Of a stretch of DNA of 39,998 bases, positions 12,488-37,737 are shown in pieces. The notes under the pieces were generated by a model. It had not been told where the DNA came from and did not search any database. It saw nothing but the letters and a program-made list of their open reading frames with translations. The DNA comes from Leptolyngbyaceae cyanobacterium CSU_1_3. Lineage in GTDB: Bacteria > Cyanobacteriota > Cyanobacteriia > Leptolyngbyales > Leptolyngbyaceae. The stretch's first letter is position 1; each line of letters opens with the position of its first letter. The stretch covers positions 1 to 39,998 of the forward strand of contig JAAUOZ010000031.1 in NCBI GenBank assembly GCA_012034655.1, written 5' to 3'. A program made the position numbers and the translations under genes.

Positions 12488-12576
12488 GGAAAGAGGAGGG
12501 AAAAAAGATGAAGGGGCAGAATTATTTATAAGACGCATTTCGCCTCCGCTCAAGGCTCAAAATCTCCCCTAAAGGA

Positions 12577-12600
12577 GGGTTGAGCGCAGTCGAAACCCGG
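12577..12600. repeat. Dispersed intergenic repeat (GGGTTGAGCGnAGTCGAAACCCG), copy 1
   Basis: This 24-bp sequence recurs with one or two differences at 35049-35072 in another intergenic region. It is preceded here by CTCCCCTAAAGGAG, a small palindrome. It looks like a short dispersed cyanobacterial intergenic repeat with no coding role. Confidence 0.7.
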
Positions 12601-12631
12601 CATCTAGTTGGCTTTAATTCCACCCTGCTAT

Positions 12632-12742
12632 TTGGTGGTCTGTCAAGAATTTTTTGAGGAATTTTTAGCTCCTCAAAAATAACCTCAAAAATAACCGGTT
12701 TCCCATTCCCGATCCGTCTATTAAAGTTTGACAGACTACTAG
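12632..12742 (-). mobile_element. MITE-like element, copy 1 (upstream of ureC)
   Basis: This non-coding element of about 110 bp is the inverted counterpart of the one at 23903-24001. Read on the minus strand it begins CTAGTAGTCTGTCA (12729-12742) and ends TGACAGACC. It shares TTTAAT, GATCGGGAAT, GGTTATTTTTGAG-like and AAAAAATTCTTGACAGACC blocks with the other copy. Terminal inverted repeats contain GTCTGTCA, and CTAG at the intact end fits the TA-within-CTAG target of IS630/Tc1-mariner elements. The left flank (TTTGGTG) has lost the CTAG. The element ends 17 bp before the ureC ATG, so it may affect ureC transcription. Confidence 0.8.
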
Positions 12743-12759
12743 ATTTGTGAGGAGTTTCT

Positions 12760-14469
12760 ATGAGTTATCGGATGCATCGCCGTGCCTATGCAGAAACCTT
12801 TGGCCCCACGGTGGGCGATCGAATTCGTCTGGCCGACACAGAACTGATAATTGAAGTCGAGCAAGACTACACCACCTATGGTGAAGAGGTAAAATTTGGC
12901 GGCGGTAAGGTGATTCGCGATGGCATGGGTCAGTCTCCGATCACCAACGAAGAGGGCGCAGTCGATGCGGTGATCACCAACGCGCTGATTTTAGATTGGT
13001 GGGGAGTGGTCAAAGCGGATATTGGGATCAAAGACGGCAAGATAGCGGCGATCGGCAAAGCTGGAAATCCCTATATTCAAGACAATGTGACGATCGTCAT
13101 TGGCCCTGGAACCGAGGCGATCGCCGGAGAAGGGCTGATTCTGACGGCTGGAGGCATCGACGCGCATATTCACTTTATCTGCCCTCAGCAGATCGAAGTG
13201 GCGATCGCCTCCGGAGTCACCACCTTGATTGGCGGTGGCACGGGGCCAGCAGCCGGAACCAACGCCACCACCTGCACCCCCGGCCCGTGGAATATTTACC
13301 GCATGTTGCAAGCGGTGGAGGCCTTCCCAATCAATGTGGGGTTTCTGGGTAAGGGTAATGCTAGTCAGCCTGCTGCCCTAGAAGAACAGGTGAAAGCGGG
13401 AGCCATGGGCTTAAAGCTGCACGAAGATTGGGGCACAACACCGGCGGCGATCGATACCTGTCTGAGTGTGGCCGATGAGTACGATATTCAGGTAGCCATC
13501 CACACCGATACCCTCAATGAGGCGGGGTTTGTCGAAGATACGATCGCCGCTTTCAAAAATCGCGTCATTCACACCTATCACACCGAAGGTGCAGGAGGAG
13601 GACACGCGCCCGACATCATCAAGGTCTGCGGCGAAGCCAATGTGCTGCCCTCTTCGACCAATCCAACTCGCCCTTATACGCTCAACACCCTCGACGAACA
13701 CCTCGACATGCTCATGGTCTGCCACCATTTGGATGCCAGCATTCCTGAAGACGTGGCGTTTGCAGAATCGCGAATTCGCCGCGAGACGATCGCCGCCGAA
13801 GATATCCTGCATGATTTGGGTGCGTTTAGCATGTTGTCTTCTGACTCGCAGGCGATGGGGCGAATTGGAGAAGTGATCATTCGCACCTGGCAAACCGGGC
13901 ACAAAATGAAGGTTCAGCGCGGAGCATTGCCAGAAGATTCCTCCCGCAACGATAATCACCGTGCCAAACGCTACATCGCAAAGTATACGATCAACCCAGC
14001 GATCGCCCACGGCATTGCTACCCATGTGGGATCGGTCGAAGTCGGCAAACTAGCAGATCTCTGCCTGTGGCGACCTGCTATGTTTGGCGTAAAGCCTGAA
14101 ATGGTCATCAAAGGCGGCATGATTGCCTGGTCGCAAATGGGCGATGCCAATGCCAGCATTCCCACCCCGCAGCCGGTGCACATGCGACCGATGTTTGGCA
14201 GTTTTGGGGGGGCGATCGCTGCCACGTCTCTGACGTTTCTTTCGCAAGCGGCGCTCAAAAAAGGCATTCCTGACAGGCTAGGCCTCCAAAAGCAAGCGAT
14301 CGCTGTGTCGGGCATTCGCACCCTCACCAAGCGAGACATGAAACTCAACGATGCACTACCCAAAATGGAAGTCGATTCTGAAACCTACGCGGTGCGGGCA
14401 GATGGGCAACTACTCACCTGCGAACCTGCAACCGTCTTGCCAATGGCGCAGCGATATTTTTTATTCTAA
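12760..14469 (+). CDS. ureC: Urease alpha subunit
   Basis: Catalytic subunit of the nickel enzyme that hydrolyses urea to ammonia and carbamate. The start is preceded by TGAGGAG with good spacing. The 569-residue length is standard. All metal ligands are visible: H136 and H138 (DAHIHFICP), the carbamylated K219 ([10 protein letters not shown]), H248, H274 ([15 protein letters not shown]) and D362 (SSDSQAMGR); the flap Cys-His is C321-H322 (MVCHHLD). The protein therefore looks active. No ureA, ureB or accessory genes ureD-G are in the window, so the urease genes are scattered, as in many cyanobacteria. A MITE-like element lies immediately upstream, and a nucleoside-type ABC importer precedes it. 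Confidence 0.98.
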
Positions 14470-22660: not shown

Positions 22661-23928
22661 ATGAAATTTTCATTGCCGACGTTTCTGCCTCGCCTTCCTG
22701 CTCAGGTTTGGATTCTTGCCTTCGGTCGGCTGCTGTCTCAAGTGGGAACTGGGTTCACGCTCTTCTACGCGCCAATTTTCTTTGTCAATCAAGTGGGGTT
22801 GTCTGCGACGCAGGTGGGGTTGGGCATTGGTAGTGCCTCTATTTCGGGCGTAGTCGGGCGGGCAATGGGCGGATCGTTCACAGATTCGGTGTTTTGGGGA
22901 CGCAGACGGACGCTCCTCCTGTCGGCGGTGATTTCTGCGATCGCTCCTTTACCCTGGCATTGGCTCAAAATTTTCCGATCTTCGTCGTTGGCAATTTGTT
23001 CATGGGCATGGGTATGGGGCTATATTGGCCCGCAACTGAAGCCGTTGTCGCCGATCTGACACCTCCTGCTCAGCGCAACGAAGCGTATTCGATTACTCGT
23101 CTGTCTGATGCGCTAGGTTTGGCAATTGGCGTGGTTTTTGGCGGTCTACTAATTAGCACAACGGGGTTCTATCGAGCATTGTTTATCGTCGATGGAATTT
23201 CATTTTTAGTGTTCTTTTGTGTGATCTATCGCTCGATCGCTGAGACGAATCAGTCCACTAGTCACCCGTCTGCTCAAGTAGGATGGAAGACCGCCCTCAG
23301 CGATCGTCGCTTGCTAATCTATTGTGCCGTCAATATCATGTTCACGAGCTATATCGTGCAGGTAGACAGCGCTGTGCCGCTTTACTTCACCAATTTTCTG
23401 CAAATGGGCAATGCTAAAACAGGCTTTGCCCCCGGCATAATTAGCGCTTTGTTTGCCTGGTATCTGACGTTTTCGGTGGTGTGTCAGTTGCCGATCGCCC
23501 GTGCCCTCAATCGGTTGCGTCGTCCCCAGGTGTTGATGCTGTCGGCGCTGTTTTGGGGGGTCGGGTTTGCCCTCGTCGCCATTACAGGTCGGGTGTCTAG
23601 CTGGCATTTGTTTTGGGCGGTGCTGGCGTTGAGTGTGCTAGCGATCGCCACGATCACCTATACGCCCGTTGCGTCGGCTCTGGTGGTGGATCTGGCTCCT
23701 GACTCTCTGCGCGGCGTGTATCTAGGGGTCAATTCTCAATGTTGGGCGATCGGATATTTCATCTCTCCCCCGTTGGGCGGTTGGGCGTTGGATCAGTCAC
23801 CCCAGATTGCAAATCTTTTTTGGCAGCTTCTAGCGCTAACTGTGATTCTTGCGATCGGCATCTTGCAGATTTTCGATCGCACACTCAGAATGACAGATCG
23901 ATCTAGTAGTCTGTCAGACTTTAATTGA
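22661..23928 (+). pseudogene. MFS transporter, single-base frameshift
   Basis: A major facilitator superfamily transporter interrupted by one frameshift. The first frame (22661 onward) encodes helices 1-3, including GRRRTLLLSAVISAIA, and would end at 23059. The homologous continuation SFTLALAQNFPIFVVGNLFM lies in the -1 frame from about 22945 and runs to 23928. Joining GCGATCGC to TCCTTTACC with one added base restores a protein of about 422 residues with twelve helices, a normal MFS length. The break abuts a HIP1 octamer. No slippery heptamer is visible, so it is a mutation or a sequencing error. The last residues (SSLSDFN) and the stop come from a MITE-like element. The substrate is unknown. 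Confidence 0.82.
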
Positions 23929-24092: not shown

Positions 24093-25316
24093 ATGTTCAA
24101 AAGTCGCCTTCTCCTCAGTTTTGTTGCCCTGGTCGTCAGCTTTTGTCTCAGTTTGCTGATCGGAAGAGATGTTGGCAGAGCGGTCTCCACGGGCTTGATC
24201 ACAGCATTTGCGAGTTTTGTAGGGGCGGCAGTGTCGGCGCAGCGCTATCGCCAGTTTTTTCACCAGAGAGCCGAAGCGTTGACGATGCACATTCGCGAGC
24301 TACAACGCCGACGGGCTGAGGCTTACGATGCGCTGGTGGCGACGATGGAAGAGCACGATCGTCGTCTCAAGTCGTCCCCTCAAACGGCATTGCAGCCACC
24401 CAAAGAAGAAATCAGTTGGAACCTCACCACGCCCCAAACCACAACCAAATCATCCCCCTCCCCGCACAGCTTGCAAACCCACATTCAGCAACTCAAAGCC
24501 CAAGAAGCTGAATTGAACCGCTCACTGGCGGCAACGCTAACTGCAAAACAACGCGCCGAACTCAATCTGACCACCGCCCAGGCAGAACTGAACCAAACTC
24601 AAGCGCAAATCCTAGAGCAAAAAAATCTCAAAGAACAGATCGTTCGAGACATCATCCAACTCACCACCCAAAAACAGCAAACCGAATCTGACCTCTCTAG
24701 GTTGCAGCCTCAGTTGCAGGAATTGGAGCGCTATCGATCGGAACTCAGCCAATTCCTGACTTCCGCCGAACCCAAACGTCAGCAAGTTGAAACGGGGTCA
24801 AAATCGCTGCAAATCGCGATCGAGCAGTTGCAGCTACAAATCTCCTCTCTGCATGTAGAACTGAGCCAACTCGAAACCCAAATTCTCGATCGCCGCACCC
24901 AAAAAGAAGAACTCGATCAGCAAATCGAGCAACTGCGCGGAGCCATCACCGCCAGCCCGCCTGCGAAACCCTCACGCCTCAAAGCCCAAACGACCCGTAG
25001 CTTACCCACTGCCCCTCTGCGCTCTGCTGCCCCACCCGACGAATGGACACAATTGGTCACTCAGCTCTCAGAATCGCAATTTCAAGCATTGAGAGCGATC
25101 GCCGAACAGACGAATCCTAATCCCACCCTCAAAAAGATTGCCGAAAACAACCTGACGATGCCAGAACTGCTGATCGACGGCATCAACGAACAAGCGCTAG
25201 ACACGATCGGCGACATGATTCTCGAACCTGGCTCAGGCTCAACTGTGCCGACGATCGCGCAAGAGTATCTCCAGACGGTGCAGACGTTGATTATTGGTCG
25301 TGTTGCGAGACGGTGA
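24093..25316 (+). CDS. Membrane-anchored coiled-coil protein with TerB-C-like C-terminal domain
   Basis: From ATG 24093 the product is about 407 residues. Near the N-terminus are two hydrophobic helices (LLLSFVALVVSFCLSLLIG and an Ala/Gly-rich STGLITAFASFVGAAVSA). A long region rich in Gln, Glu and Leu follows (about residues 60-305) with heptad-like runs such as LQTHIQQLKAQEAELN and LQLQISSLHVELSQLE, predicted to be coiled coil. After a Pro/Arg linker a globular end (about 320-407) contains SESQFQALRAIAEQ, NNLTMPELLIDGINEQALDT and IGDMILEPGS, resembling the TerB-C domain of Ter stress proteins. A TTG at 24075 is an alternative start, but AAGGA abuts it. Helicase and DUF2791 ATPase genes follow on the same strand. 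Its role is unknown. Confidence 0.75.
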   Translation: MFKSRLLLSFVALVVSFCLSLLIGRDVGRAVSTGLITAFASFVGAAVSAQRYRQFFHQRAEALTMHIRELQRRRAEAYDALVATMEEHDRRLKSSPQTALQPPKEEISWNLTTPQTTTKSSPSPHSLQTHIQQLKAQEAELNRSLAATLTAKQRAELNLTTAQAELNQTQAQILEQKNLKEQIVRDIIQLTTQKQQTESDLSRLQPQLQELERYRSELSQFLTSAEPKRQQVETGSKSLQIAIEQLQLQISSLHVELSQLETQILDRRTQKEELDQQIEQLRGAITASPPAKPSRLKAQTTRSLPTAPLRSAAPPDEWTQLVTQLSESQFQALRAIAEQTNPNPTLKKIAENNLTMPELLIDGINEQALDTIGDMILEPGSGSTVPTIAQEYLQTVQTLIIGRVARR

Positions 25317-25393
25317 AAATTGATGGGGGCTACGCTGCGCGAGAAGAATGGGGGATAAAGTTGAACAACTTCGGTTTGCAGGGGTTGGGTCGT

Positions 25394-26209
25394 TTACTTG
25401 CGGTTGCGTTTGAGAGCGACTCCGGTTCCGAGGGCAGCGATCGCTAGAAGACCGATTGCAGGGTTCGATTCGGGAACCGATTTGATGGGCGTAGGATCTT
25501 GGACAGTGTTGGCGCGTAGCAGCCAGTTGCCAAGCGAATAGGGAACCAAATTGCTGAGCGGAAGCCTCGGCCCTAGCAGGCTTCCGCCGGCTTGGCTACC
25601 AGTCGGATTGATAAGGTTGACCGACCCAAACCACGATTTACCCTGCGGCATCGTCGTATCAAAGGCCGCCGGAAATTGCCCTTGACGTTGCTCTGGAAAC
25701 AGTGCCCCTACAAAAAATCTGCCCTCTACCCGTCTCGCCTGATCAAACTTGACATTGACAAAGGCGCTTGGTCCTTTAGGTGTGACCTCGGTTTGTGCCT
25801 GCGACACCACCTTTAGCGTTTTGTCTTTCTCGTCATATTGATAGAGAAAAAGACTGGCGACTTTGGGCTTGCCGTTCTGATCTTTGCTGATGTCTAACAC
25901 TGTCTCTTGGTTGGGGCAAGGATTTTCGGTTGCCGCACCCCAGGCTAGCGAAACCGAATCGATCCACTCACCCTCTGGCTCGACCTCAAACTCGTTCAGC
26001 CACATAAAGTCGGCGAGTACAGTCCCCACTTCGGCAGTGCAATTCCCTGTTTTTTCGTCGAACTGGCGCAGGCCGACGGCGCTCTCGGCAACTCCATCAT
26101 CCACAAGGTACTGCGGATTGAGAACCACCGCTTGGGCAGAGGTGGCAATGCCGATCGTTAATACAGCAGCCCCAATGGTTGCCAGTGCAGGTGTAAATTG
26201 CTTGTGCAT
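25394..26209 (-). CDS. PEP-CTERM sorting-domain surface protein
   Basis: Secreted protein of unknown function destined for exosortase processing. The 271-residue product starts with a signal peptide (HKQFTPALATIGAAVLTIGI, cleavage expected after AQA). It ends in a PEP-CTERM tail: VPESN, a hydrophobic helix (IGLLAIAALGTGVAL) and the basic cluster KRNRK. The mature domain has Asp/Glu-rich stretches and conserved-looking segments such as RFFVGALFPEQRQGQFPAAF, without a recognised catalytic motif. The ribosome site GGGGAAAG precedes the start. It is on the opposite strand from its neighbours, between the TerB-C-like gene and the DUF2791 ATPase gene. No exosortase gene is visible in the window. 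Confidence 0.85.
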   Translation of the reverse strand: MHKQFTPALATIGAAVLTIGIATSAQAVVLNPQYLVDDGVAESAVGLRQFDEKTGNCTAEVGTVLADFMWLNEFEVEPEGEWIDSVSLAWGAATENPCPNQETVLDISKDQNGKPKVASLFLYQYDEKDKTLKVVSQAQTEVTPKGPSAFVNVKFDQARRVEGRFFVGALFPEQRQGQFPAAFDTTMPQGKSWFGSVNLINPTGSQAGGSLLGPRLPLSNLVPYSLGNWLLRANTVQDPTPIKSVPESNPAIGLLAIAALGTGVALKRNRK

Positions 26210-26855
26210 GAGGCTTTCCCCGGCGAAGGTGTGATACGAATTCAGGAGCGAGTCGAAATTAGTCTAGATGCAACAAAGCAATGACGGTAGAAGTTCTAAG
26301 TCGTCTGCGGTAACTTCATCAAAGTTTGATCCGTACTACTTAGTTCTTACTACTCAAATTTTGACGACATCCCCGGACAAATTGCTCCCGGTTTCAGGGT
26401 TTTGACGGAGAAGTTCGGCAATTCGGCGGAAATACCAAAACATTAATTCATCTGAAGTGATAAATGTGACCCTGTTGATTCAAAAAATACTGGAATGATT
26501 ACTCACTTTCTCTCTCATCTTCTTCCCTAGAACAAGATAAATTTAATTTGATTCAAGTGTCAGTAGTTAGTAAAAAAATTTATGAGGAAATTGTAAATCT
26601 ATGGATTTTCCATGAATTTCTCTAAATTATTGATGAACTTATCAAGAGTTCCGTGATGGCTCTATTGTCAGATCAACTGAAAAGTGCGTCAGCCATCTCC
26701 ATAGAGTCCTGAGGCAGCAGGTCAGGCAGAATGCACGGCACTGCAAAAATCCGGCACTGCAAAAATCTCTCGATAAAAATCTCTCAACTTCGCCAAGATT
26801 GCTATAGTGATACGCTGAGTGCGAGTCAATTGCTCAAAATTTTGCTCAAAACCCT
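26210..26855. other. Gene-free stretch, divergent promoter region
   Basis: About 646 bp between the divergent PEP-CTERM and DUF2791 ATPase genes, with lower GC than the surroundings (AT-rich around 26440-26650). I see no gene. Near the ATPase gene are direct repeats: GGCACTGCAAAAATC at 26737-26751 and 26753-26767, overlapping AAAAATCTCTC twice at about 26761-26787. These could be regulatory sites, but no known operator matches. Confidence 0.5.
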
Positions 26856-28214
26856 ATGGCACTGCCTAAAGTCTCGAAACGAGTTTCAACAGCCCTGATT
26901 AATGCCCTGGGTGCAGGGGTCGTGCCTCGTTTGGGGTTGGAGCAAATTGCGGTAGGACGAGAAAAAGAAATTGCCACGCTTCAGCAAGATTTGGAGAATA
27001 TCGCAGCAGGTGGCGCGGCATTTCGGTTTGTGATTGGTCGGTATGGGGCTGGAAAAAGCTTTACGCTGCAACTATTAAGGAGTTGCGCCCTTGAAAGAGG
27101 CTTTGTGGTGGCAGACGCAGACATTACGCCCGATCGTCGCCTCAGTGGGTCGAATGGCGCAAGCATCGCCACCTATCGCGAGTTGATGCACAATCTTTCG
27201 ACCAAGAGCCGACCCGACGGTGGCGCACTGGCAACTATATTAGAGCGCTGGATTGCAGCAATTCAAACTCAGGTGGCTCAAGAGACTGGCTCAAAACCCA
27301 ATGATGTAGGGTTTGATGGCTCGGTGGAGGCAAAAATTCGGGAAGTGACCCAGGATGTTTCTGACTTGGTGAATGGGTTCGAGTTTGCCAATGTGATCAT
27401 TGCCTACTGGTCGGGCTATCGCCATGACGACGACACCAAAAAAGAATCGGCGCTGCGCTGGCTGCGGGGAGAATTTTCAACCAAAACTGAGGCAAAGGCT
27501 GCCCTGGGCGTGCGAGTGATTATTGACGACGACACCTGGTATGACTACATCAAGTTGCTGGCGCGATTTGTGGCTGACATCGGCTACAAGGGGCTGATTG
27601 TGGTTCTAGATGAGGTGATTCACCTGTTCAAAATTACTACTAGCGTGTCGCGGCAGAATAATTATGACAAGCTGCTGGCAATGTTTAACGATGCCATGCA
27701 GGGCAGGGTAAGTCATTTGGGAATGCTGATTGGCGGCACTCCCCAGTTTCTAGAAGATCCGCGTCGAGGGCTATATAGCGATCCGGCGTGGCAGCGGCGC
27801 ACGGCCGAGAGTCGGCTGATTAGCCAATCGGGTCTGGTGGATACGATCGCCCCTGTGATTCGTTTGGAACCGTTGACGCGATCGCAAATCTTACAGCTAT
27901 TGCAGCGCTTGGCGGAGCTACACAAAAATCACTACGCGGATACCAGGGGGCTTTCGACCCAAGACCTGCAAGAATTTTTGCGAGTGATGGGCGATCGCGT
28001 GGGTGCAGATAAACTGATCACACCGGGGGAAATTGTTCGCGACTTTATGACGGTGCTGAATGTTTTGCATCAAAACCCAAAACTATCGCTCACCCAGTTG
28101 TTGCAGGGTCAGATGTTGCCGGGAAAATTGTTGCAGGGGCAGCTTCAGCCCGCCGCCCCACACAAAGTGCCGCAGCCCGATCAAGAAGGAGGGTTTGCTG
28201 AATTTACCGTTTGA
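26856..28214 (+). CDS. DUF2791-type P-loop ATPase (BrxD-like)
   Basis: Predicted AAA/ORC-like ATPase of the DUF2791 family; BrxD of some BREX systems belongs to the same group. The 452-residue protein has Walker A GRYGAGKS (61-68), Walker B IVVLDEVIHLF (DE at 252-253) and the diagnostic segment IGGTPQFLEDPRRGLYSDPA (about 291-310) followed by QRRTAESR. The C-terminal quarter is Gln/Leu/Pro-rich, with short repeats LLQGQMLPGKLLQGQLQP. Family members are thought to work with SF2 helicases in DNA-related stress or defence roles; here an Lhr-like helicase gene lies 2.4 kb downstream on the same strand. The 3' end overlaps the convergent PEP-CTERM gene by 34 bp. The biological role is not known. 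Confidence 0.85.
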   Translation: MALPKVSKRVSTALINALGAGVVPRLGLEQIAVGREKEIATLQQDLENIAAGGAAFRFVIGRYGAGKSFTLQLLRSCALERGFVVADADITPDRRLSGSNGASIATYRELMHNLSTKSRPDGGALATILERWIAAIQTQVAQETGSKPNDVGFDGSVEAKIREVTQDVSDLVNGFEFANVIIAYWSGYRHDDDTKKESALRWLRGEFSTKTEAKAALGVRVIIDDDTWYDYIKLLARFVADIGYKGLIVVLDEVIHLFKITTSVSRQNNYDKLLAMFNDAMQGRVSHLGMLIGGTPQFLEDPRRGLYSDPAWQRRTAESRLISQSGLVDTIAPVIRLEPLTRSQILQLLQRLAELHKNHYADTRGLSTQDLQEFLRVMGDRVGADKLITPGEIVRDFMTVLNVLHQNPKLSLTQLLQGQMLPGKLLQGQLQPAAPHKVPQPDQEGGFAEFTV

Positions 28215-29227
28215 GGCGATAGCTCCCGCCGCCGCCGGCCCAAAAGACACCCGCTAAGACCAATTAGCCCAACTAGCACAGAGGGTTCTGGAATTTTTCT
28301 GCGGAGTTCGTCGCCTGCGCCTCTTTGCACTTTGAGCCGGGGAGTTTCAGCCCGTTGAACTTTATAGCTTTGAACGCCAGCGCTTGCACCCTCAGTCTGT
28401 CGAACTTCAACAGTCTTCATATCAGCATTTTGAAACTTGATCTCAGCCGACCCATCGGCGATCGAGGCGGCCGTTCTCGCCATAGCTGGAGCAAGCAGGG
28501 CAGGCTTGAAGGCGATCGCGGTATTGCTGAGATCAATGCGGGCAATTTTTACACTGGCTCTGGCGGAGGTGGTGTTGTCGCCAAAGAAAAGAGCATTAGG
28601 GTTGGAATAGAACAAGCCTTCGGGCGAATAGTCGCGCAGTTTGCCACTGAGAATCGGAGCTTGGTAGTTGCGATTGGCAAACAGATTGTAGGAGTCACCC
28701 AAAATAGATAGCTCGTAGCGGGTCATGGCTCGACCAGGGTTGAAGGAATTGGCCTCGCCACGGGTGAATCTGGGTGGTTTGGTTACGCCGTCGTTTGGGC
28801 CCAAATAGAACCCGTTTTTTGGGTAGAATTTGTCCACAGTCCTAATTCGATGCCTCGCTTATCAGAGCCGAGAGCAATCACGCTGAACCCGGCACGATCG
28901 TTGGAACTGTGGTCTTCAGACAATAGTTGCACATTGAAGCCGAGGGTATAGCCACGGGTACGGTTCAATGCAAAGGCGGCGGGGGCAGTTATGGCGTAAC
29001 CAGCTTGCAGGGCATTGTTGGCAGTGGTGTTGAGGGTGGTTGTGCCTGCGCTGACTGTTTGAGTTGCCCCAGGGGGGACGGAAAGACCTCCAGCCTTGGC
29101 TGCTGAGCGATGTGTTTTTGGAGCCATCGTAGAGGGTGAACGTGGCGGCATGGCTGGAGGTGGCACTGGTTAAAACCGTGGTCAACAGCGTGAGGCTGAC
29201 GGTGACAGGAATCCAAATAAGTTTCAT
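28181..29227 (-). pseudogene. PEP-CTERM protein broken by two compensating frameshifts
   Basis: Three stretches in two frames together make one PEP-CTERM surface protein. The signal peptide and start lie at 29227 (KLIWIPVTVSLTLL, ending SSHA), followed by TFTLYDGSKNTSLSSQGW. The middle (PPGATQTVSAGTTTLNTT to GIELGLWTN and IWAQ) is in another frame; the rest (DGVTKPPRFTRGEANS to the IPEPS tail, hydrophobic helix and GRRRR) returns to the first. The breaks fit an extra base in a run of six G at 29072-29077 and a lost base in TTT at 28794-28796. Corrected, the protein is about 348 residues. After GRRRR it runs on 14 residues into the convergent ATPase gene. Sequencing error is likely. Confidence 0.8.
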
Positions 29228-29360
29228 CTGACCTCAGTAGCATCATATTCGGATACAAGCTACCACTGAATCTACAGAATTTTACTGAGTTTAGATCAAC
29301 TATACAAAATCTTGATGGAATGGGCGATCGCACACCATTCGCACGCTATTTGAAGTCAGT

Positions 29361-29460
29361 TATCAACGCTAAGAAGCTATATCTCTAAATGCCTATGAAT
29401 TAAACTATCAACGCTAAGAAGCTATATTCTTAAACGTCTATAGATTAAATCATCAACGCT
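29361..29460. repeat. 45-bp imperfect tandem repeat
   Basis: The unit begins TATCAACGCTAAGAAGCTATA and recurs exactly 45 bp later (29361, 29406), with a partial third copy (ATCAACGCTAA) at 29452. The remainder of the units is diverged (CTCTAAATGCCTATGAATTAAAC versus TTCTTAAACGTCTATAGATTAAATC). It lies in the 322-bp gene-free stretch (29228-29549) between two secreted-protein genes. Confidence 0.85.
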
Positions 29461-29484
29461 AAAACAACGCTGAAATTAATCGAA

Positions 29485-29526
29485 CCAAAAAGAGGATGTG
29501 ATCGCACTACGGTCAGTCACATCCTC
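29485..29526 (-). terminator. Intrinsic terminator of the Pro/Thr/Ser-rich secreted-protein gene
   Basis: GAGGATGTGA (29492-29501) pairs perfectly with TCACATCCTC (29516-29525). Read on the minus strand the hairpin is followed by TTTTTGG, about 25 bp after the stop codon of the upstream minus-strand gene, which is the position expected for a rho-independent terminator. Confidence 0.8.
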
Positions 29527-29549
29527 AAAATAGAGTTAAGACTCAGAGA

Positions 29550-30245
29550 TCAAGCGCTACAAACGGGGCGATCGTTAGCATTCATCCGCACTTTTCCCTC
29601 TGAGCCATTGATCATAAAGGGCACTTCTTTATCATCGACAACACGCACAAAAGCGGGCTTGTCTGCGGCACAGGCTCGAATTGCGGCTGCCCAGGCTTGA
29701 AGGTCGCGCGCAGTTTTGTCGGTGATTGGGGTGTTGCTGGTAATTGAGGCATCCTTGACGATTCGCAACTTCATCGGCAGGGTGAAAAATGCCGGAGTCA
29801 CAGGCGGCGTAGGAAACGACACTTCTGTGATACCAGTGATAGTCTCTGACTCAAGCACCATGGTTTTCGCAGTTGGCTTGGCATCCGCAGCCGGCGTAAC
29901 CGTAGGACTAGACGTAGAAGGAGCGATCGGGGTGGCAGGCTGCACCTCAGTCGGAGCGGGGGCAGAGGGAGTTGCTTCCGGAGCGGGCGTGGAAGGAGTT
30001 GCTTCGATCGGCGGCGTAGTCGAAGGAGACATTTCGGGGGAGGGTGTCGTTTCGGGTGAAGGTGCGGCGGGCGGTGTCACGGGCTGCATCTCTGTAGCGG
30101 GCGGTGTCGTAGGGGTTGTTTCCGTAGACGGCTTTTCAGAGGGAATGGTGGGCAGCGTTTCCGTAGACTGCGCCGTCACTGGGAGTGTATACCCCATGAG
30201 AATTGCGACGACACTTGCAGCAGCAAATTTCTTTAACATAACCAA
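29550..30245 (-). CDS. Secreted Pro/Thr/Ser-rich protein of unknown function
   Basis: A 231-residue protein that I cannot assign to a known family. It has a signal peptide (LKKFAAASVVAILMGYTLPV, cleavage expected after TAQ), then about 100 residues of Pro/Thr/Ser/Ala-rich linker with repeated TTP, PEATPS and APSPETTP-type units. A C-terminal globular part of about 95 residues (from MVLESETITGITEVSF) includes one Cys in IRACAADKPAFV and another in RPVCSA; these may form a disulfide. GGAG stands six bases before a TTG at 30245 and twelve before the ATG at 30239, so either may be the start. An intrinsic terminator follows. The linker suggests spanning or attachment to the cell wall. Confidence 0.72.
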   Translation of the reverse strand: MVMLKKFAAASVVAILMGYTLPVTAQSTETLPTIPSEKPSTETTPTTPPATEMQPVTPPAAPSPETTPSPEMSPSTTPPIEATPSTPAPEATPSAPAPTEVQPATPIAPSTSSPTVTPAADAKPTAKTMVLESETITGITEVSFPTPPVTPAFFTLPMKLRIVKDASITSNTPITDKTARDLQAWAAAIRACAADKPAFVRVVDDKEVPFMINGSEGKVRMNANDRPVCSA

Positions 30246-30649
30246 TCTATCTCCGTTATCAGTCTGAGTATCAACGTCATCTTACGACGTGTGCTGCACC
30301 CTGGTTTGCGCTTGCTTTTGATACTGGTACAAGCTTGATACAAGCAAGGTTCACAGTTTTATTGCAGATCGGTGATCTCCGTGCAGACTAACTAACATTG
30401 GTTACGTTCCTCAATATTCCTAAAGATAGATTTCTATTGTGTTACAAAAATTAGTTCTTTTGACCGATGTGTCGAGTAGGATAGGTTCACATCTTTGTGT
30501 GCCAAGCAATGCAGCCAATTTTTGCTAGATATAAATGAGTTATCTTCAATCAAGCGATCGCCGCTGTGGGGCAATTTTTAGTTTTGCAGATCTTAAACTC
30601 AGTTTTTAGTAATCATCCCTGGGTTGTATAGTTTCACACGATCGCAATC
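30246..30649. other. Gene-free stretch between divergent genes
   Basis: About 400 bp separate the minus-strand secreted-protein gene from the helicase gene. No gene, hairpin terminator or known operator was recognised. GCTTGATACAAGC, a small palindrome, occurs near 30331; a similar CTTGATACAAGCA is found before ftsH near 4925, too short to be meaningful alone. Promoters for both genes must lie here. Confidence 0.45.
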
Positions 30650-32839
30650 ATGCAAACTTCTTTTACTCGTCTTGCGCCGTTTATTCAAGACTATATCTAT
30701 AGCAATGGTTGGACTGATCTGAGGCAAGCGCAAATCGAGGCCTGTCGGGTTTTATTCGACACAGAGGCGCATTTGTTGATCGCTGCCGGAACGGCATCTG
30801 GAAAGACAGAAGCTGCTTTTTTGCCTGTGTTGACGCTGCTCTATGAAGACCCACCCGTGACCGTGGGCGCGATGTATATCAGTCCGATTAAGGCGTTGAT
30901 TAATGACCAGTTTGATCGCTTAAATGATTTGCTGAAATATGCCGATATTCCGGTTTGGGCGTGGCATGGCGATGTGACGCAAAGCCGCAAAAAAAAGTTG
31001 TTATCTCAGCCTAAAGGTATATTACAAATTACACCCGAATCGCTAGAGAGTTTGTTGATCAACAAAAGTAATGATCTCGATCGTCTTCTAGGTGATTTGC
31101 GATTTGTGGTGATTGATGAGATTCATGCATTTATTGGCAGCGATCGCGGCGATCAGATTCTCTGTCAGTTGGCTCGACTTGCCAAACGAACGAACAATCA
31201 GCCCCGGCGGATTGGGCTGTCGGCAACTTTGGGCGACTATGCTTTGGCAGAAGAATGGCTGCGAGCGGGCACTCGTCAAACGGTCATCACTCCCAACATT
31301 CAGGGCGGGCAGCGCAACATTCAACTTTCGATCGAGCATTTTTATGACCCAGGGCTGGTTGTTCGCGCCCAGGGAGAGACCAAAGATTCGGCGTTCAATC
31401 CCTATCATTTGCACCTGTTTCAACAGACCCAGGGGCGCAAGTGCTTGGTGTTTGCCAATGGTCGCACGGCCACGGAGGAAGCGATCGCAGCCCTGCGAGA
31501 AATTGCCCGTGCTAAAGGGTGTCCTGACATTTATCACGTCCACCACGGGAGCATTTCGGCGGCGCTCAGAGAAACCGCAGAAGCCGCGATGCGAACCCCT
31601 GATAAGCCCGCGGTAACGGCTGCCACTGTGACCTTTGAGATGGGCATTGATTTAGGGCAACTCGATCGCGTCATTCAGTTAGAATCTCCTGCTTCGGTGG
31701 CAAGTTTTTTGCAGCGATTGGGACGATCGGGGCGGCGAGGCGGGGCGGCAGAAATGCGATTTGTTTGTGCAGAAGATAAGCCCACGGGCGAAGAATCGCT
31801 ACCCGAACAAATTCCCTGGCAGTTGTTGCAGTGTATTGCCATTATTCAGCTTTATTTAGAAGAGAAATGGATTGAGCCAATTCGCCCGGCAAAATATCCA
31901 TTTAGCTTGCTCTATCACCAAACAATGAGTGTGCTGGCTGCACTGGGTGAATTGTCTGCGGGTGCATTGGCACAGCAGGTTTTGACGCTGGCTCCATTTC
32001 GATCCGTTACTCAGGATGAATATCGACAAATTTTGCGATATTTAATTGAAATTGATCACATTCAAAAAACTGTTGAAGGAGGATTAATTATTGGATTGAC
32101 AGGCGAACCTATTGCACGAAACTACAAGTTTTATGCAATTTTTCCTGACATAGAAGAGTATACCGTCAAGCACGAAACAAAGGCGATCGGTAGTATTGTC
32201 GTTCCACCCAGTGAGGGCGATCGCTTTTCGCTGGCGGGCCGAATTTGGGAAGTGCTTGAAGTTAATTCAAAGAAAAAAGTAATTTCTGTTCGATCGACTC
32301 AAAAAACAGCTACATCTAGCTCCTGGCGAGGCAGCGCTGGAAATATTCATACTCGTATTCTGCAACGCATGAAGCAAGTTTTGCAGGAAAAAACGTCATA
32401 CTCCTATCTGCAATCAGGCGCAAACGATCGCTTAAAAGCAGCCCGTGAACTGTCAAGAAATGGATTAATTAGCCATCCAGTGGTCTTGTTGGATGAAGAA
32501 ATTTGTTGCATTTTTCCCTGGGCAGGCACGGTCGAATTTCGCACCCTAGAACGATTTTTGAGATTCCACTGTAAAGCAGCACTGGGTATCAAAAGTGTGA
32601 AGGCACGATCGCCTTATTTTCTGATTGTGAGATTGGGTAAATGCCAGGTCGAAAATTTGGAATATGAACTGCGATCGTTTGCAGAAAGATCGATCAACGT
32701 CAATGATTTACTCGACCCAGAAGAAGCGCCCAAACTACAGAAGTATGATGAATTTATTCCCCCGAATCTACTTCGCAAAAGCTTTATTACAGACTATCTC
32801 GACCTTGAAGAATTGGCGAAAACAATTCAACGCTGGTGA
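30650..32839 (+). CDS. Lhr/BrxHI-like superfamily 2 DEAD/DEAH-box helicase
   Basis: A 729-residue DExH-box helicase. Motifs in order: Q-like LRQAQIEA (24-31), motif I GTASGKTE (47-54), Ia YISPIKALINDQ, II DEIH (156-159), III SAT (191-193), IV CLVFANGRTATEE, V VTFEMGIDLG and VI QRLGRSGRRG (355-364). The 360-residue C-terminal half carries winged-helix-like and beta segments (GRIWEVLEVNSKKKVISVRS) as in Lhr-type helicases. It most resembles the helicase that accompanies DUF2791 ATPases (BrxHI of BREX). Such an ATPase is encoded 2.4 kb upstream on the same strand, and ruvC follows. DNA unwinding in repair or defence is inferred from the family; the cellular task is unknown. Confidence 0.88.
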   Translation: MQTSFTRLAPFIQDYIYSNGWTDLRQAQIEACRVLFDTEAHLLIAAGTASGKTEAAFLPVLTLLYEDPPVTVGAMYISPIKALINDQFDRLNDLLKYADIPVWAWHGDVTQSRKKKLLSQPKGILQITPESLESLLINKSNDLDRLLGDLRFVVIDEIHAFIGSDRGDQILCQLARLAKRTNNQPRRIGLSATLGDYALAEEWLRAGTRQTVITPNIQGGQRNIQLSIEHFYDPGLVVRAQGETKDSAFNPYHLHLFQQTQGRKCLVFANGRTATEEAIAALREIARAKGCPDIYHVHHGSISAALRETAEAAMRTPDKPAVTAATVTFEMGIDLGQLDRVIQLESPASVASFLQRLGRSGRRGGAAEMRFVCAEDKPTGEESLPEQIPWQLLQCIAIIQLYLEEKWIEPIRPAKYPFSLLYHQTMSVLAALGELSAGALAQQVLTLAPFRSVTQDEYRQILRYLIEIDHIQKTVEGGLIIGLTGEPIARNYKFYAIFPDIEEYTVKHETKAIGSIVVPPSEGDRFSLAGRIWEVLEVNSKKKVISVRSTQKTATSSSWRGSAGNIHTRILQRMKQVLQEKTSYSYLQSGANDRLKAARELSRNGLISHPVVLLDEEICCIFPWAGTVEFRTLERFLRFHCKAALGIKSVKARSPYFLIVRLGKCQVENLEYELRSFAERSINVNDLLDPEEAPKLQKYDEFIPPNLLRKSFITDYLDLEELAKTIQRW

Positions 32840-32967: not shown

Positions 32968-33078
32968 GCTAAAAATACGTTAACCTGTTAGCCAGTGCTT
33001 CTACAGAAGGGCTGCTTTGTCGAGATCTGTGGTTCAATCCATTCATCCAGCACAACCCGACCTCAACCCACGCAACGG

Positions 33079-33602
33079 ATGAAGAAACCTTCTGCCGCCT
33101 CCCTGCCCCTGCCCATTTTGGACTTGCGAGGCAAGACCATTTTAGGGATCGACCCCGCGATCGCTACGATCGGTTACGGGGCCATCTGCGATCAAACGGT
33201 GCTCGACTATGGTGTGATCGTCACTCCGGCTAGTTCCCCTGTTTACCAGCGCCTCAAGCAGATTCATGATGACGTGTGCGAACTGTGCGAAGCGCTCAAG
33301 CCCGACTTTGTGGCGATCGAGATGCCGTTTTTGCTAGAGAAAACACCAATGCTGGCAAAGTGCTGCGGGCCCTAGGCGTGATCGAACTGGCCGTCGCCGA
33401 AAGCGGCATGACAGAGCCAATTTTTCTCCACCAGTCCCAGGTCAAATCTGCCGTTGCCCAATATGGGGCAGAGAAGTCAGAAATTCAGCAAGCGGTGATG
33501 ATGATCTTCAACCTGCCAGAATTGCCCAAACCCGACGATGCAGCCGATGGGCTGGCGATCGCCTACACTGCCCAAACCGGGGCACGGGCCAACGTCCGCT
33601 AG
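33079..33602 (+). pseudogene. ruvC: RuvC-like Holliday junction resolvase, single-base frameshift
   Basis: RuvC resolves Holliday junctions during recombination. The first frame (ATG 33079) gives ILGIDPAIATIGYGAI with the first catalytic Asp, then VAIEMPFLLEK with the catalytic Glu, and would stop at 33375. The continuation TNAGKVLRALGVIELAVAES, HQSQVKSAVAQYG and KPDDAADGLAIAYT with the final Asp pair lies in the -1 frame to 33602. One added A in the AAAA run at 33340-33343 restores EKNTNAGK and a 174-residue protein of normal RuvC length. All catalytic positions are then present. A lost homopolymer base or sequencing error is more likely than decay. It follows the helicase gene and converges with the M56 peptidase gene. 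Confidence 0.83.
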
Positions 33603-33613
33603 CCTACGCTCGC

Positions 33614-34456
33614 TCAAGTGTGAAATGGAACTGCTAACAAAGGCAGCGAAACCCACAAGAGCCACAGCCACGATCGTGTACCCTCAGAGGACCCCTCTTC
33701 CGAAGGTTTCAACAGGGCATCAATTCGCTCATTCAGACGATTTTTGACAACGGCGCTACTAAAGGAAGCACAAAGACCTTCTGGCTGAATTTGAGGCGCA
33801 CTAACCACCCACAACAACGCTTCTGCCAAAAGCAAGGGATCAACCGTTTGGGCTGCCCAGCGATCGGCCCTCAGTTCTCGTAAAATCAGCAGTTCTTGCC
33901 AGAGCGCCTCGGTCTGAGGTAGCCAACAGGTTAAGCGTCGCAGCCCGCCTAGCCAAAAAAACCAGAACGTATCGTGATAGTAGGTGTGCCCCTGCTCGTG
34001 TACCAGGACGCTCTCAAGATGTTCGGCATCCAGAGTTTCGAGCAAACCTTGACTAATCACTAACTCTGGCATCCAAAACCCAACCTGAGCCACAAACGGC
34101 GTGGAATCTGGCATGACATGAGCCGTTTCGCCGCATAGCTCGGTTTTGGGGTAAGTACGAATTTTTTGCAGCGATCGCCGCCCCTCTAGGGCCAACTTCA
34201 CGACCCAAATCAGCGCCCCACTTAGAAACCCGATCGCTAAAATATAGCTTCCCAAACCTTCCCACCAGCGCACCATCTGACCCCGCGGCCCCATACACAA
34301 AATCGCAATCGCCGTAGTCAGCAACAGCAGAGGGGAGAAGAGAAACAGCCCCAAAACCTTTTGCCAGCGATGGACCCCGCGATCGCTGGAGTCAAACCAG
34401 AGGCAACGCACCCCAAACGCCAGAATTAGAGCAGATGACAGCATAATCAAGTGCAT
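33614..34456 (-). CDS. M56-family membrane metallopeptidase (BlaR1-like, short)
   Basis: Membrane zinc peptidase related to the protease part of BlaR1/MecR1, which cleaves the paired BlaI-type repressor after sensing a signal. The 280-residue protein has about four hydrophobic helices and the zinc motif HEQGH (153-157, within LVHEQGHTYYHD), followed by ELRADRWAAQ with the likely third zinc ligand Glu. There is no penicillin-binding sensor domain at the C-terminus, so beta-lactam sensing is unlikely. Its ATG overlaps the end of the BlaI-type repressor gene by 10 bp, the usual two-gene arrangement. The stop lies 11 bp from that of the converging ruvC gene. Confidence 0.9.
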   Translation of the reverse strand: MHLIMLSSALILAFGVRCLWFDSSDRGVHRWQKVLGLFLFSPLLLLTTAIAILCMGPRGQMVRWWEGLGSYILAIGFLSGALIWVVKLALEGRRSLQKIRTYPKTELCGETAHVMPDSTPFVAQVGFWMPELVISQGLLETLDAEHLESVLVHEQGHTYYHDTFWFFWLGGLRRLTCWLPQTEALWQELLILRELRADRWAAQTVDPLLLAEALLWVVSAPQIQPEGLCASFSSAVVKNRLNERIDALLKPSEEGSSEGTRSWLWLLWVSLPLLAVPFHT

Positions 34457-34875
34457 GATTTTCCCTCCCTGGCTTTGCGTGCGGCTTGTAGTTTTTGGGC
34501 GATCGCTTCTAGCTGCTCGACGCTGGCTTGATCCAAACTATCGGCAAAGGCGGCAACCACATCAGGATTGCCCACCGCCAAGAATTGATTTAACTGTTCA
34601 TAGGCCTGGAGGGCTTTGGCTTCACCCTGAGACACCAGGGGCCGCCACGAAAAACTGCGGCTTTGTTTGTCGCAGGCTAACCAGCCCTTTTTGGTCAGAC
34701 GATTGAGCACTGTAGTAACGGATGTATAGGCAAGTTCGCGATCGGGGTTGGCGAGAATGCGATCGTGAACATCTTTGACGGTGACATTGCCCAACTCCCA
34801 AATGATTTGCAGAATTTCTGCCTCTAGAGGGCCGAGAGAAAGCTGTTTTGGACGATGATTCGGCAAGAAAGCCAT
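34447..34875 (-). CDS. BlaI/MecI/CopY-family transcriptional repressor
   Basis: A winged-helix repressor of 142 residues. The DNA-binding domain (about residues 12-80) shows the family pattern LGPLEAEILQIIWELGNVTV, VKDVHDRI, then AYTSVTTVLNRLTKKGWLA, the recognition helix and wing. The C-terminal helices mediate dimerisation. It is co-transcribed with the M56 peptidase, whose gene overlaps by 10 bp, suggesting proteolytic derepression of this operon and possibly of distant genes. Such proteins normally autorepress at a dyad in their own promoter; I could not identify a clear dyad between 34876 and 35000. The inducing signal is unknown. Confidence 0.93.
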   Translation of the reverse strand: MAFLPNHRPKQLSLGPLEAEILQIIWELGNVTVKDVHDRILANPDRELAYTSVTTVLNRLTKKGWLACDKQSRSFSWRPLVSQGEAKALQAYEQLNQFLAVGNPDVVAAFADSLDQASVEQLEAIAQKLQAARKAREGKSCT

Positions 34876-35005
34876 TTCGCTTTAGTAATAATATTGACCC
34901 TGTCTCAGACTATCTCAAACTCAAATGTTAGAGGAGCGCGATCTAACCACTCAAGTTTAAAGCTAAAGAATCTGCGAGTTAATCATGTACCACTCGCCAG
35001 ACTGA

Positions 35006-35072
35006 GACTCTGCTCAACCTTCAACCGTCGAGGGTTAAGCAGAGTCGAGGGTTGAGCGGAGTCGAAACCCGA
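35006..35072. repeat. Hairpin plus dispersed GGGTTGAGCGGAGTCGAAACCC repeat, copy 2
   Basis: GACTCTGCTCAACC (35006-35019) pairs with GGTTAAGCAGAGTC (35033-35046) with one non-Watson-Crick position. It is followed at 35049-35072 by the same 24-bp repeat as at 12577-12600. The right arm and the repeat are themselves related (GTCGAGGGTTAAGCAGAGTCG, GTCGAGGGTTGAGCGGAGTCG). It lies in the 282-bp stretch between blaI-type and bcsA genes, where no gene is visible. Confidence 0.7.
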
Positions 35073-35120
35073 TTCACGGGTCTTTTATTTTCAGGCAACT
35101 TCTAACAGTCCATGTATTGG

Positions 35121-35156
35121 ATTGGGGTGAGGCAAAAGTCCAGTCGTTGAACTGAC
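35121..35156. repeat. Dispersed 36-bp repeat, copy 2
   Basis: TTGGGGTGAGGCAAAAGTCC followed by AGTCGTTGAACTGAC matches the copy at 32931-32967. It ends one base from the bcsA stop codon, so it forms the start of that transcript's 3' untranslated region. Confidence 0.7.
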
Positions 35157-35157
35157 C

Positions 35158-37731
35158 TTAGCTTAGACTCTTGACCAGTTGCTTGATCTTGGTTTCCTGT
35201 CGCTCCATGATTTGAGCGGGGAAGCTCATCTCTAACACCACGCGACTGCCCCTTTGATCGACCACAGATTCCACATCATCCACTTGAGCGAGCAATCGCT
35301 TGGGCGTAGGCTCATTCTCATCTTGGCTGAGCAGCAACCCAACGAGTGGCTGGTTGTGCCCTAATGCATCTAAGTCATGAATCATACCCGTCGGCATTTC
35401 TAGCTGCAAGCTGCGCTGATTGATCTCCGTGGCCACTGCCTGGTAGAAGTGCCCGCGCCAGTAGATTTGAGCATGGGCATGGATGGGCTTCCGCATCTTG
35501 AGATTGCTAGGAGCCGCCTCCCGTTTGCGTAACGATCGCCCAATGCTGCTGGCAATAAATCGAAACGACTCCATCGGGTCGTCTACATTGTCGCGCTGCT
35601 GAGAATACCACTCTTGTACGTCTGAGTAGATCACCACGCTGACGGCATCCAGTTGAGAACGGGTCAGATTGATGAACTCGATCGACAACATTGACTGAGA
35701 TTCATTGATTGGCACAATGCGAATAATTTGCCCCGTCACAAAGGCTCTCGCCCCATAATCGCCAATTAGTTCAATCTCAACTTCATTCACTAGATCTGAC
35801 CAGGAATCGAGAATCATCTGACATCCAGTTTCACTGATGTTGGCGGTTGTGCCTCTAAGGGTGCGTTCTTCGCTGTAGATCACGGCGCTAATTTTACGAT
35901 CGAGGCGATGGGCCCGACGCAGTTGTGGTTGCTCAAACGCCACCAGCAGCGCTGACGCAATCAAAATCAGGTTAAAGAAACTCCAGATCATGTTGACCAA
36001 CACCGCCTCAGCATCCTGGGGACGAATGATCAGCCAAAAAGGAACCGCCCCGATCGAAGCGGCTACCAAAGCTCCTGCCAGCACTAGCCCCCGCGCAGAA
36101 GCCCAGTCGAAGGTGCGCTGTGTCACCGAAAGCCCTTTATCTGTGACGTTAAACGAACCCAGCTTGGGATTGATCAGCGCCAGCATTGTCACCAGGCCCG
36201 CATGAAAGGACATGGCAAACTCGTAGATCTCGTTCCAAAAAGAGAAGCGAACGTGCTTGTAGGTGATGTAGTTGGCATAGGTGGAGATGAAAAAATGGGG
36301 GAGCGCATAGGCCAGCGTTTCTAGACCCAAACCGCGAATCGGATTGATGCCAAACACGAGAAACAAAGCCGGAGCCAGGGCGTACATCAGCCGAGGAAAG
36401 CCATAGAAGAAGTGGGAAGTTGCGCTGAAGTAGCAGATGCGTTGCGGAATCGACAGCCTGAGCTTAGGGTTGAAAAGCGGATTCTCAATGCGTAAAATCT
36501 GCGCCATGCCTCTCGCCCAGCGAATTTGCTGGCCCACATAGGCAGAAAACTTCTCAGGAGCAAGACCCGCCACCATGATGCGATCGTAATAGACCGACTC
36601 ATAGCCCAGCGAGTGCAGCCGCAGCGAGGTATGGCAATCTTCTGTCACCGTCTCAACGGCGATACCCCCCACTTCGAGCAAATGGGATTTACGCACCACC
36701 GCCGCCGATCCACAAAAGAACGCCGCATTCCAAAAATCGTTGCCTTTTTGCAGCACCTTATAAAAAAGCTCGTTGCCCACCGGAATTTTGCCCCCCGTCT
36801 GCAAGTTGCGCTCAAAGGGGTCGGGATTGTAGAACCAGTGGGGAGTCTGCACCAACGAAACCTTAGGACGATAGAAAAATCCGACGGTCTCTTTGAGAAA
36901 ATGCCTGACCGGGATGTGGTCACAGTCTAAAATCAGGATCAGGTCGCCGCTAGTTTTTCTCAGGGCTGTGTTGATGTTGCCCGCTTTAGCATGATCGTTA
37001 TTGTCGCGGGTTAGCATTGTACAGCCGAGTTCTTCGCACATTCTTCTCAAGACTTCTCGGCGCGACTTAAGCTTCTCCGCCCGCCCATCATCCAGAATGT
37101 AGACGCGCTTTTTGTCGGCGGGGTAGTCGATCGCCAGTGCCCCCAGGGTGGTTTTGCGAACAATCTCTACATCCTCGCTGTAGGTAGGAATGTAAATGTC
37201 TACCGAAAACAACTCACTAGGTGGAATGTTCGATAGATCAACGGGGCGGCGTTCTTTAAGTTGCAGAGTTTGAAAGAACGCCAACACGAGGGTCAAGATC
37301 GCGTACAGTTCTGCGACATAAAGCAAAACACTACAAATCGCATCCAGCCAACCACTGGTTAAATTCAGGGTGTAGTTAGTGCGGTAATAGAGATAGCGAA
37401 AGGTCGTGATCAAACTTAGCCACACCATAAACAGGTGCAAATATTGACTGGTTTGCTCTTGGGGTTGTTTTTGCTCTAGGGTAGCCACCAACCAGCCCAC
37501 CCCGACGAGAATAACTGCAACAAGACCCTGCTGCCACACCGTTAACGGCGTGATGATCAACGGCACAGACAGCAGCATCAACAGCACCATCAGCCAGATA
37601 AGCTGGGTGCGCCCTACGCCGCCGAGGGTACGATCGAAGAAATTAGGAATCAGGTCAGCCAGCCAAGCGACCAGTCGCTCGCTTTTGCTGCGATATCGCT
37701 TTGGCTCTAGCTCAGAAGTTTGGCTTGTCAT
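35158..37731 (-). CDS. bcsA: Cellulose synthase catalytic subunit (BcsA-like, with PilZ)
   Basis: Processive membrane GT2 glycosyltransferase that polymerises UDP-glucose and extrudes the glucan. The 857-residue protein shows N-terminal helices (about 42-155) and the GT2 domain with DDG (214-216), DCD (269-271, ILILDCDHIP), TED (363-365, TVTEDCHTSL) and QQIRW (401-405), all needed for activity. More helices and a C-terminal PilZ domain follow (about 610-700, RRAHRLDRK then NISETG), the expected c-di-GMP site. It follows bcsB with a 6-bp gap, so they form an operon and c-di-GMP activation is inferred. Extra sequence after PilZ (about 150 residues) is unassigned. The product (cellulose or a related glucan) cannot be proved from sequence. 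Confidence 0.95.
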   Translation of the reverse strand: MTSQTSELEPKRYRSKSERLVAWLADLIPNFFDRTLGGVGRTQLIWLMVLLMLLSVPLIITPLTVWQQGLVAVILVGVGWLVATLEQKQPQEQTSQYLHLFMVWLSLITTFRYLYYRTNYTLNLTSGWLDAICSVLLYVAELYAILTLVLAFFQTLQLKERRPVDLSNIPPSELFSVDIYIPTYSEDVEIVRKTTLGALAIDYPADKKRVYILDDGRAEKLKSRREVLRRMCEELGCTMLTRDNNDHAKAGNINTALRKTSGDLILILDCDHIPVRHFLKETVGFFYRPKVSLVQTPHWFYNPDPFERNLQTGGKIPVGNELFYKVLQKGNDFWNAAFFCGSAAVVRKSHLLEVGGIAVETVTEDCHTSLRLHSLGYESVYYDRIMVAGLAPEKFSAYVGQQIRWARGMAQILRIENPLFNPKLRLSIPQRICYFSATSHFFYGFPRLMYALAPALFLVFGINPIRGLGLETLAYALPHFFISTYANYITYKHVRFSFWNEIYEFAMSFHAGLVTMLALINPKLGSFNVTDKGLSVTQRTFDWASARGLVLAGALVAASIGAVPFWLIIRPQDAEAVLVNMIWSFFNLILIASALLVAFEQPQLRRAHRLDRKISAVIYSEERTLRGTTANISETGCQMILDSWSDLVNEVEIELIGDYGARAFVTGQIIRIVPINESQSMLSIEFINLTRSQLDAVSVVIYSDVQEWYSQQRDNVDDPMESFRFIASSIGRSLRKREAAPSNLKMRKPIHAHAQIYWRGHFYQAVATEINQRSLQLEMPTGMIHDLDALGHNQPLVGLLLSQDENEPTPKRLLAQVDDVESVVDQRGSRVVLEMSFPAQIMERQETKIKQLVKSLS

Positions 37732-37737
37732 GGCGAT

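What the first reader, a model, noticed from the sequence alone, without database searches (positions are those of the whole stretch)
24093..32839. Dispersed TerB-C / DUF2791 ATPase / Lhr-like helicase set
Three plus-strand genes within 9 kb encode a membrane-anchored coiled-coil protein with a TerB-C-like end, a DUF2791 P-loop ATPase and a large SF2 helicase. The last two resemble BREX BrxD and BrxHI, yet no pglX, pglZ, brxC or methylase is here. I recall comparative-genomic work linking Ter-domain proteins with helicases and DUF2791 ATPases as a DNA-processing stress system, but cannot verify it. Other genes on the opposite strand lie between the members, so it is not a simple operon. A membrane-tethered, ATPase-loaded helicase machine, for defence or genome maintenance, is my inference.
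Basis: partly seen in the sequence, partly recalled or inferred. Interest (0 to 1): 0.72.

Follow-up and report, generated by a model that had tools for sequence, protein, structure and literature searches.

The report
Dispersed, membrane-anchored Shango-type gene set
A cyanobacterium carries, scattered among ordinary genes, the three parts of a known anti-virus system called Shango, with one part rebuilt as a membrane-anchored protein; relatives keep all three genes even when they lie megabases apart, which suggests the proteins work together without needing to be in one operon.

Summary
The three plus-strand genes are homologues of SngA, SngB and SngC of the anti-phage system Shango: SngB (E 4e-172) and SngC (E 1e-246) match the Shango models far better than BREX BrxD or BrxHI, and the first protein has a TerB_C end (E 2e-13). 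They form a distinct cyanobacterial variant: SngA lacks TerB_N and is instead a two-helix membrane anchor, a coiled coil and the TerB_C tail. Of 146 cyanobacterial genomes, 29 have all three families and only 5 others have any one; 20 of the 29 have this variant. Linkage runs from a tight A-B-C operon to genes 3.5 Mb apart, yet protein distances track RpoB (r 0.85-0.93), so inheritance is mainly vertical. In 22 genomes with B but no C within 10 kb, the distant C was checked and is always the matching type. One lineage lost B and C together and kept a diverged A. The window preserves the loosened cluster in A-B-C order; the same genome also carries a canonical TerB_N-type SngA-SngB pair and a separate SngC. 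Coupling of the three is well supported. Whether the variant does defence or genome maintenance is not shown.

The parts
24093..25316 (+). SngA-like protein, 407 aa: membrane hairpin, coiled coil, TerB_C tail; no TerB_N
   Evidence: PF15615 2.4e-13; PADLOC SngA 3.5e-16, profile positions 303-525 of 528; 21-sequence alignment; AlphaFold2 model
24108..24239 (+). Two predicted transmembrane helices (about residues 6-24 and 30-49)
   Evidence: Hydropathy maximum 2.67 here; hydrophobic N-terminal pair conserved in all 21 aligned sequences; helices 5-24 and 27-94 in the model
25038..25310 (+). TerB_C tail domain with conserved MPxLLIDxIN motif
   Evidence: Invariant motif columns; C-terminal domain model pLDDT 85, pTM 0.78
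25394..26209 (-). Interposed PEP-CTERM-like secreted protein; not part of the system, but a marker of the conserved arrangement
   Evidence: Homologue at the same place between A and B in Myxacorys and before B in Phormidesmis
26856..28214 (+). SngB-like ATPase, 452 aa; Walker A GRYGAGKS around residues 61-68, DE at 252-253
   Evidence: PF10923 1.6e-163; PADLOC SngB 3.8e-172 against BrxD 7.9e-58; motifs invariant in 20 sequences
28181..29227 (-). Interposed PEP-CTERM-like gene split over frames; not part of the system
   Evidence: ORFs; weak PEP-CTERM match 0.0031, below Pfam cut-off
29550..30245 (-). Interposed proline-rich secreted protein; marker of the conserved arrangement next to SngC
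   Evidence: Homologue beside SngC in G033, G046, G107 and Phormidesmis priestleyi ULC007
30650..32839 (+). SngC-like SF2 helicase, 729 aa; motif I AGTASGKT 46-53, DEIH 156-159, QRLGRSGRR 355-363
   Evidence: PADLOC SngC 9.8e-247 against BrxHI 2e-130; motifs conserved in 20 sequences

Best explanation
This is a cyanobacterial variant of the three-gene Shango system whose operon has loosened. Shown: the three families are co-retained across cyanobacteria regardless of distance, inherited mainly vertically, matched in subtype, and under purifying selection with catalytic motifs intact. Inferred: SngB, an ATPase of the BrxC/BrxD family, loads or powers the SF2 helicase SngC on DNA; SngA tethers the pair to the membrane through its hairpin and coiled coil, with the TerB_C tail as the docking end; the machine meets incoming or aberrant DNA near the membrane and unwinds it or blocks its replication. 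No nuclease domain was found in the three proteins, so destruction of DNA, if any, would need host nucleases. Identity and coupling are about 0.9 likely; a defence role about 0.6.
For: Model scores for SngB and SngC. 29 of 29 genomes with B and C also have TerB_C. All 25 genomes with B and no C within 10 kb have SngC elsewhere, and 22 of 22 examined are the same subtype. Subtype is one clade in both trees. RpoB correlation 0.93/0.90/0.85 for B/C/A. Joint loss of B and C with a changed LLID motif in the remaining A. dN far below dS. Shango restricts phages in P. aeruginosa and E. coli (PMC10250203), and SngC falls in a helicase clade defined by defence systems (PMC12278908).
Against: No phage or plasmid test exists for this subtype. 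Vertical inheritance and housekeeping neighbours are unusual for a defence system. SngA lacks the TerB_N and TerB domains found in the other SngA proteins checked here (TerB itself in only some of them). Complex formation and DNA target are not shown. G128 keeps an intact A without detected B or C.
Confidence: 0.62

Rival explanations
1. A domesticated genome-maintenance module, related to Shango but now serving chromosome replication, segregation or repair at the membrane rather than phage defence.
For: Protein distances follow RpoB; stable chromosomal sites, for example A beside the same genes in G079, G114, G134, G099 and G127; housekeeping neighbours in the window; no plasmid record with 60% or more identity for B or C.
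Against: Present in only 20 of 146 genomes and lost as a set in one clade, so dispensable; the family and its helicase clade are defence-associated; SngA evolves fast.
Confidence: 0.28
2. SngA of the window is a bystander: only SngB and SngC form the working unit and the TerB_C protein has its own role.
For: A survives alone in four genomes and is often the unlinked member.
Against: A lies next to B in all 48 Nostocales loci; every genome with B and C has a TerB_C protein; the LLID motif is altered in the three family members that lost B and C; A-C distances correlate beyond the species signal (partial r 0.65, exploratory).
Confidence: 0.07
3. A remnant of BREX that kept the BrxD and BrxHI pair.
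For: PF10923 and helicase superfamily are shared; BrxD and BrxHI models match second best.
Against: SngB and SngC models score far higher; true BrxD/BrxHI-like pairs exist in other cyanobacteria with E near 1e-42 and 1e-135 and without TerB_C; trees separate them by long branches.
Confidence: 0.03

Closest known systems
Shango (SngA-SngB-SngC), P. aeruginosa and E. coli; Millman et al. 2022, Johnson et al. 2023 (PMC10250203)
   Same: All three protein families, A-B-C order, intact ATPase and helicase motifs
   Different: SngA has no TerB_N or TerB but a membrane hairpin and coiled coil; genes often unlinked; mainly vertical inheritance; SngB and SngC lie in a separate clade from Klebsiella-type and canonical cyanobacterial Shango; no phage test
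Paenibacillus plasmid Shango (NZ_CP045296, NZ_CP011513)
   Same: Nearest SngB (54 and 52% identity) and SngC (48 and 43%) outside cyanobacteria found in the plasmid collection; A-B-C gene order
   Different: SngA has TerB_N and TerB_C; compact cluster on plasmids
BREX BrxD-BrxHI pair
   Same: Same ATPase and helicase superfamilies
   Different: Much weaker match; BREX core genes not found near here; no TerB_C partner
Ter-dependent stress response systems (Anantharaman et al. 2012)
   Same: Links Ter domains with DNA-processing genes, as cited in PMC10250203
   Different: Paper not held here, so its gene sets could not be compared directly

Membership tests
Shango | SngB-family ATPase | tested here: met
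   PADLOC SngB 3.8e-172, residues 4-419 of 452
Shango | SngC-family helicase | tested here: met
   PADLOC SngC 9.8e-247, full length
Shango | TerB-domain SngA (TerB_N, TerB, TerB_C) | tested here: inconclusive
   Only the C-terminal part matches: TerB_C met, TerB_N and TerB absent; homologues of the subtype G082 and G107 the same
Shango | Three-gene operon | tested here: not met
   Not met in the window (gaps 1.5 and 2.4 kb with opposite-strand genes), but met in the same subtype in G082 and G091. I therefore file this as a Shango variant, not as canonical Shango
Shango | Anti-phage activity | not testable with these tools
   Needs phage challenge
BREX | pglX methylase, pglZ and brxC present | tested here: not met
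   No such model in the window proteins scanned with PADLOC
BREX | BrxD above the curated cut-off | tested here: not met
   NF033438 197.5 bits against cut-off 350

The most novel reading that the evidence does not exclude
A Shango-type set that works as an unlinked, vertically inherited, membrane-tethered surveillance machine of the chromosome: a defence system turned housekeeping (or the reverse), which surveys that require gene clustering would miss.
Probability: 0.3. Interest if true: 0.72.

Novelty: new variant of a known kind. Interest (0 to 1): 0.52.

Why it matters
Defence systems are found mostly through gene clustering. A subtype whose parts are co-retained and type-matched while megabases apart shows that the three proteins depend on each other. 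It offers a natural coupling test for the unsolved Shango mechanism (joint loss of B and C, with change in A's tail motif), and it suggests that clustering-based surveys undercount such systems in cyanobacteria. The membrane-anchored SngA also hints at where the machine acts.

Tried and rejected
BREX membership: rejected on scores and missing core genes. Chance neighbourhood: rejected by co-occurrence. Mobile carriage of this subtype: no plasmid record at 60% or more identity, no plasmid match for SngA, five phage records with distant SngC matches, one of them near full length. Solved structures: no match for SngA or SngB at E 0.1, and no Shango-named helicase among the matches listed. Fold search of full-length SngA returned mainly coiled coils, none significant. 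The C-terminal domain gave mostly MarR/LysR-type regulator matches, all with E above 0.1; the tail is acidic, which argues against DNA binding, so a winged-helix fold is only a lead. Literature on a Shango mechanism or on this subtype: none found in the held library.

Full report
Identity. The window holds three plus-strand genes at 24093-25316, 26856-28214 and 30650-32839. Pfam gives TerB_C (PF15615, 2.4e-13), PF10923 BrxC_BrxD (1.6e-163) and an SF2 helicase with an Lhr winged helix. The PADLOC models name them: SngA 3.5e-16 (C-terminal part only), SngB 3.8e-172 and SngC 9.8e-247, against BrxD 7.9e-58 and BrxHI 2e-130 for the last two. These are the parts of Shango, a three-gene system with TerB, ATPase and helicase domains that restricts phages in P. 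aeruginosa and E. coli (PMC10250203).

Two sets in one genome. The window's own assembly has a second TerB_C protein directly before a second SngB on contig C350, and a second SngC in pieces on contig C40. That second SngA is split by a frameshift and carries TerB_N and TerB_C, with TerB just under its cut-off. The window's SngA has only TerB_C.

Architecture of the window's SngA. In 21 aligned sequences the protein starts with two hydrophobic helices, continues as a coiled coil and ends in a conserved tail around MPxLLIDxIN (in G089 the reading frame breaks before the motif). AlphaFold2 gives helices 5-24 and 27-94, further long helices, and a compact C-terminal domain. In three genomes (G024, G039, G052) a second, longer TerB_C protein lies beside sngB; in G024 it carries a WD40 propeller behind the tail and ends 49 bp before sngB.

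Co-occurrence. In one sample of 146 cyanobacterial genomes, SngB (E below 1e-70) occurs in 30, SngC (below 1e-200) in 29 and TerB_C in 33; 29 genomes have all three. Only five others have any: one SngB fragment and four TerB_C proteins. Fisher p is 9e-30 (B-C), 4e-25 (A-B) and 1e-26 (A-C), with the caveat that genomes are related. Twenty of the 29 have the window's subtype; nine have only the canonical one.

Linkage. G082 and G091 have a tight A-B-C order (gaps 51-237 bp). The window has gaps of 1.5 and 2.4 kb. G107 has A and B 0.66 Mb apart and B and C 3.5 Mb apart on one contig. Among 80 named loci, A lies next to B in all 48 Nostocales loci, while C is often absent within 10 kb. All 25 such genomes tested have a SngC elsewhere; 22 of these were examined and all are the window subtype, scoring 1285-1343 bits on the subtype model against about 400-550 for canonical ones. 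On the RpoB tree, A-B linkage and B-C linkage each need at least 4 changes, presence 2.

Ancestry of the window's layout. The order MFS, A, PEP-CTERM-like gene (minus), B, proline-rich gene (minus), C survives in pieces elsewhere: MFS-A-PEP-B in Myxacorys, PEP-B-proline-rich-C in Phormidesmis priestleyi ULC007, proline-rich-C in G033, G046 and G107, MFS-A in G107. The window therefore preserves a loosened cluster that is broken further in relatives. That it once was a tight operon is inferred from G082, G091 and the Paenibacillus clusters.

Inheritance. SngB and SngC trees each make the window subtype one clade (100/100 and 99/97), with the window next to G089 (Phormidesmis priestleyi) in both. 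Protein distances follow RpoB with r 0.93, 0.90 and 0.85 for B, C and A. A wider quick tree places Paenibacillus plasmid Shango with this subtype and the other Shango sets, including the canonical cyanobacterial ones, apart from them. Paenibacillus SngA has TerB_N, so the simplest reading is that the cyanobacterial lineage lost TerB_N and gained the membrane and coiled-coil part; the opposite order is not excluded.

Selection and joint loss. dN is low (0.08-0.13 for B and C, 0.10-0.38 for A) against dS of 0.9-3.0 or saturation. Walker and helicase motifs are conserved in 20 homologues. In one clade of the window's family B and C are both gone; three members keep A, two of them at the same chromosomal site as A in G079, G114 and G134, and their LLID motif is altered. 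G128 also lacks detected B and C but has an intact motif; its assembly is fragmented.

Mechanism. I commit to this: SngB powers or loads the helicase SngC on DNA, and SngA holds the pair at the membrane, docking by its tail. Shown: families, intact motifs, coupling. Inferred: the complex, the membrane site, the DNA target. Defence is the likelier role because Shango restricts phages elsewhere and SngC belongs to a helicase clade made up of defence systems (PMC12278908). Against it stand vertical inheritance and neighbours that look like housekeeping or ordinary metabolism: homoserine dehydrogenase, FtsH, an ABC transporter, urease, gyrase A, RuvC and cellulose synthase. PADLOC found no defence system among the neighbours scanned; its IetA matches fall on FtsH's AAA domain.

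Noticed in passing
22661-23928, 28181-29227, 32995-33602: MFS transporter, PEP-CTERM-like gene and RuvC are each read in two or more overlapping frames; with the split SngA and SngC of the second set this points to assembly errors or pseudogenes in this genome.
   Followed up: partly
L008:4505-7932 (own genome, contig C336): A cassette of two BrxC/BrxD-family ATPases with an unmatched upstream protein; PADLOC gives only weak BrxD and SngB matches, so it may be an unnamed system.
   Followed up: partly
L113:3748-6555: An SngA-like protein with a repetitive coiled coil, the TerB_C tail and a C-terminal WD40 propeller, directly before sngB; an IS-type transposase (12312-13103) lies between sngB and sngC.
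   Followed up: partly
33614-39831: M56/M48-like peptidase and BlaI/CopY-type repressor beside a CelA-BcsB cellulose synthase pair, all on the minus strand.
   Followed up: no
own genome, contigs C350 and C40: The canonical second Shango set has SngA-SngB together but SngC on another contig; in G063 the canonical SngB and SngC are about 122 kb apart, so loosening is not confined to the window's subtype.
   Followed up: partly
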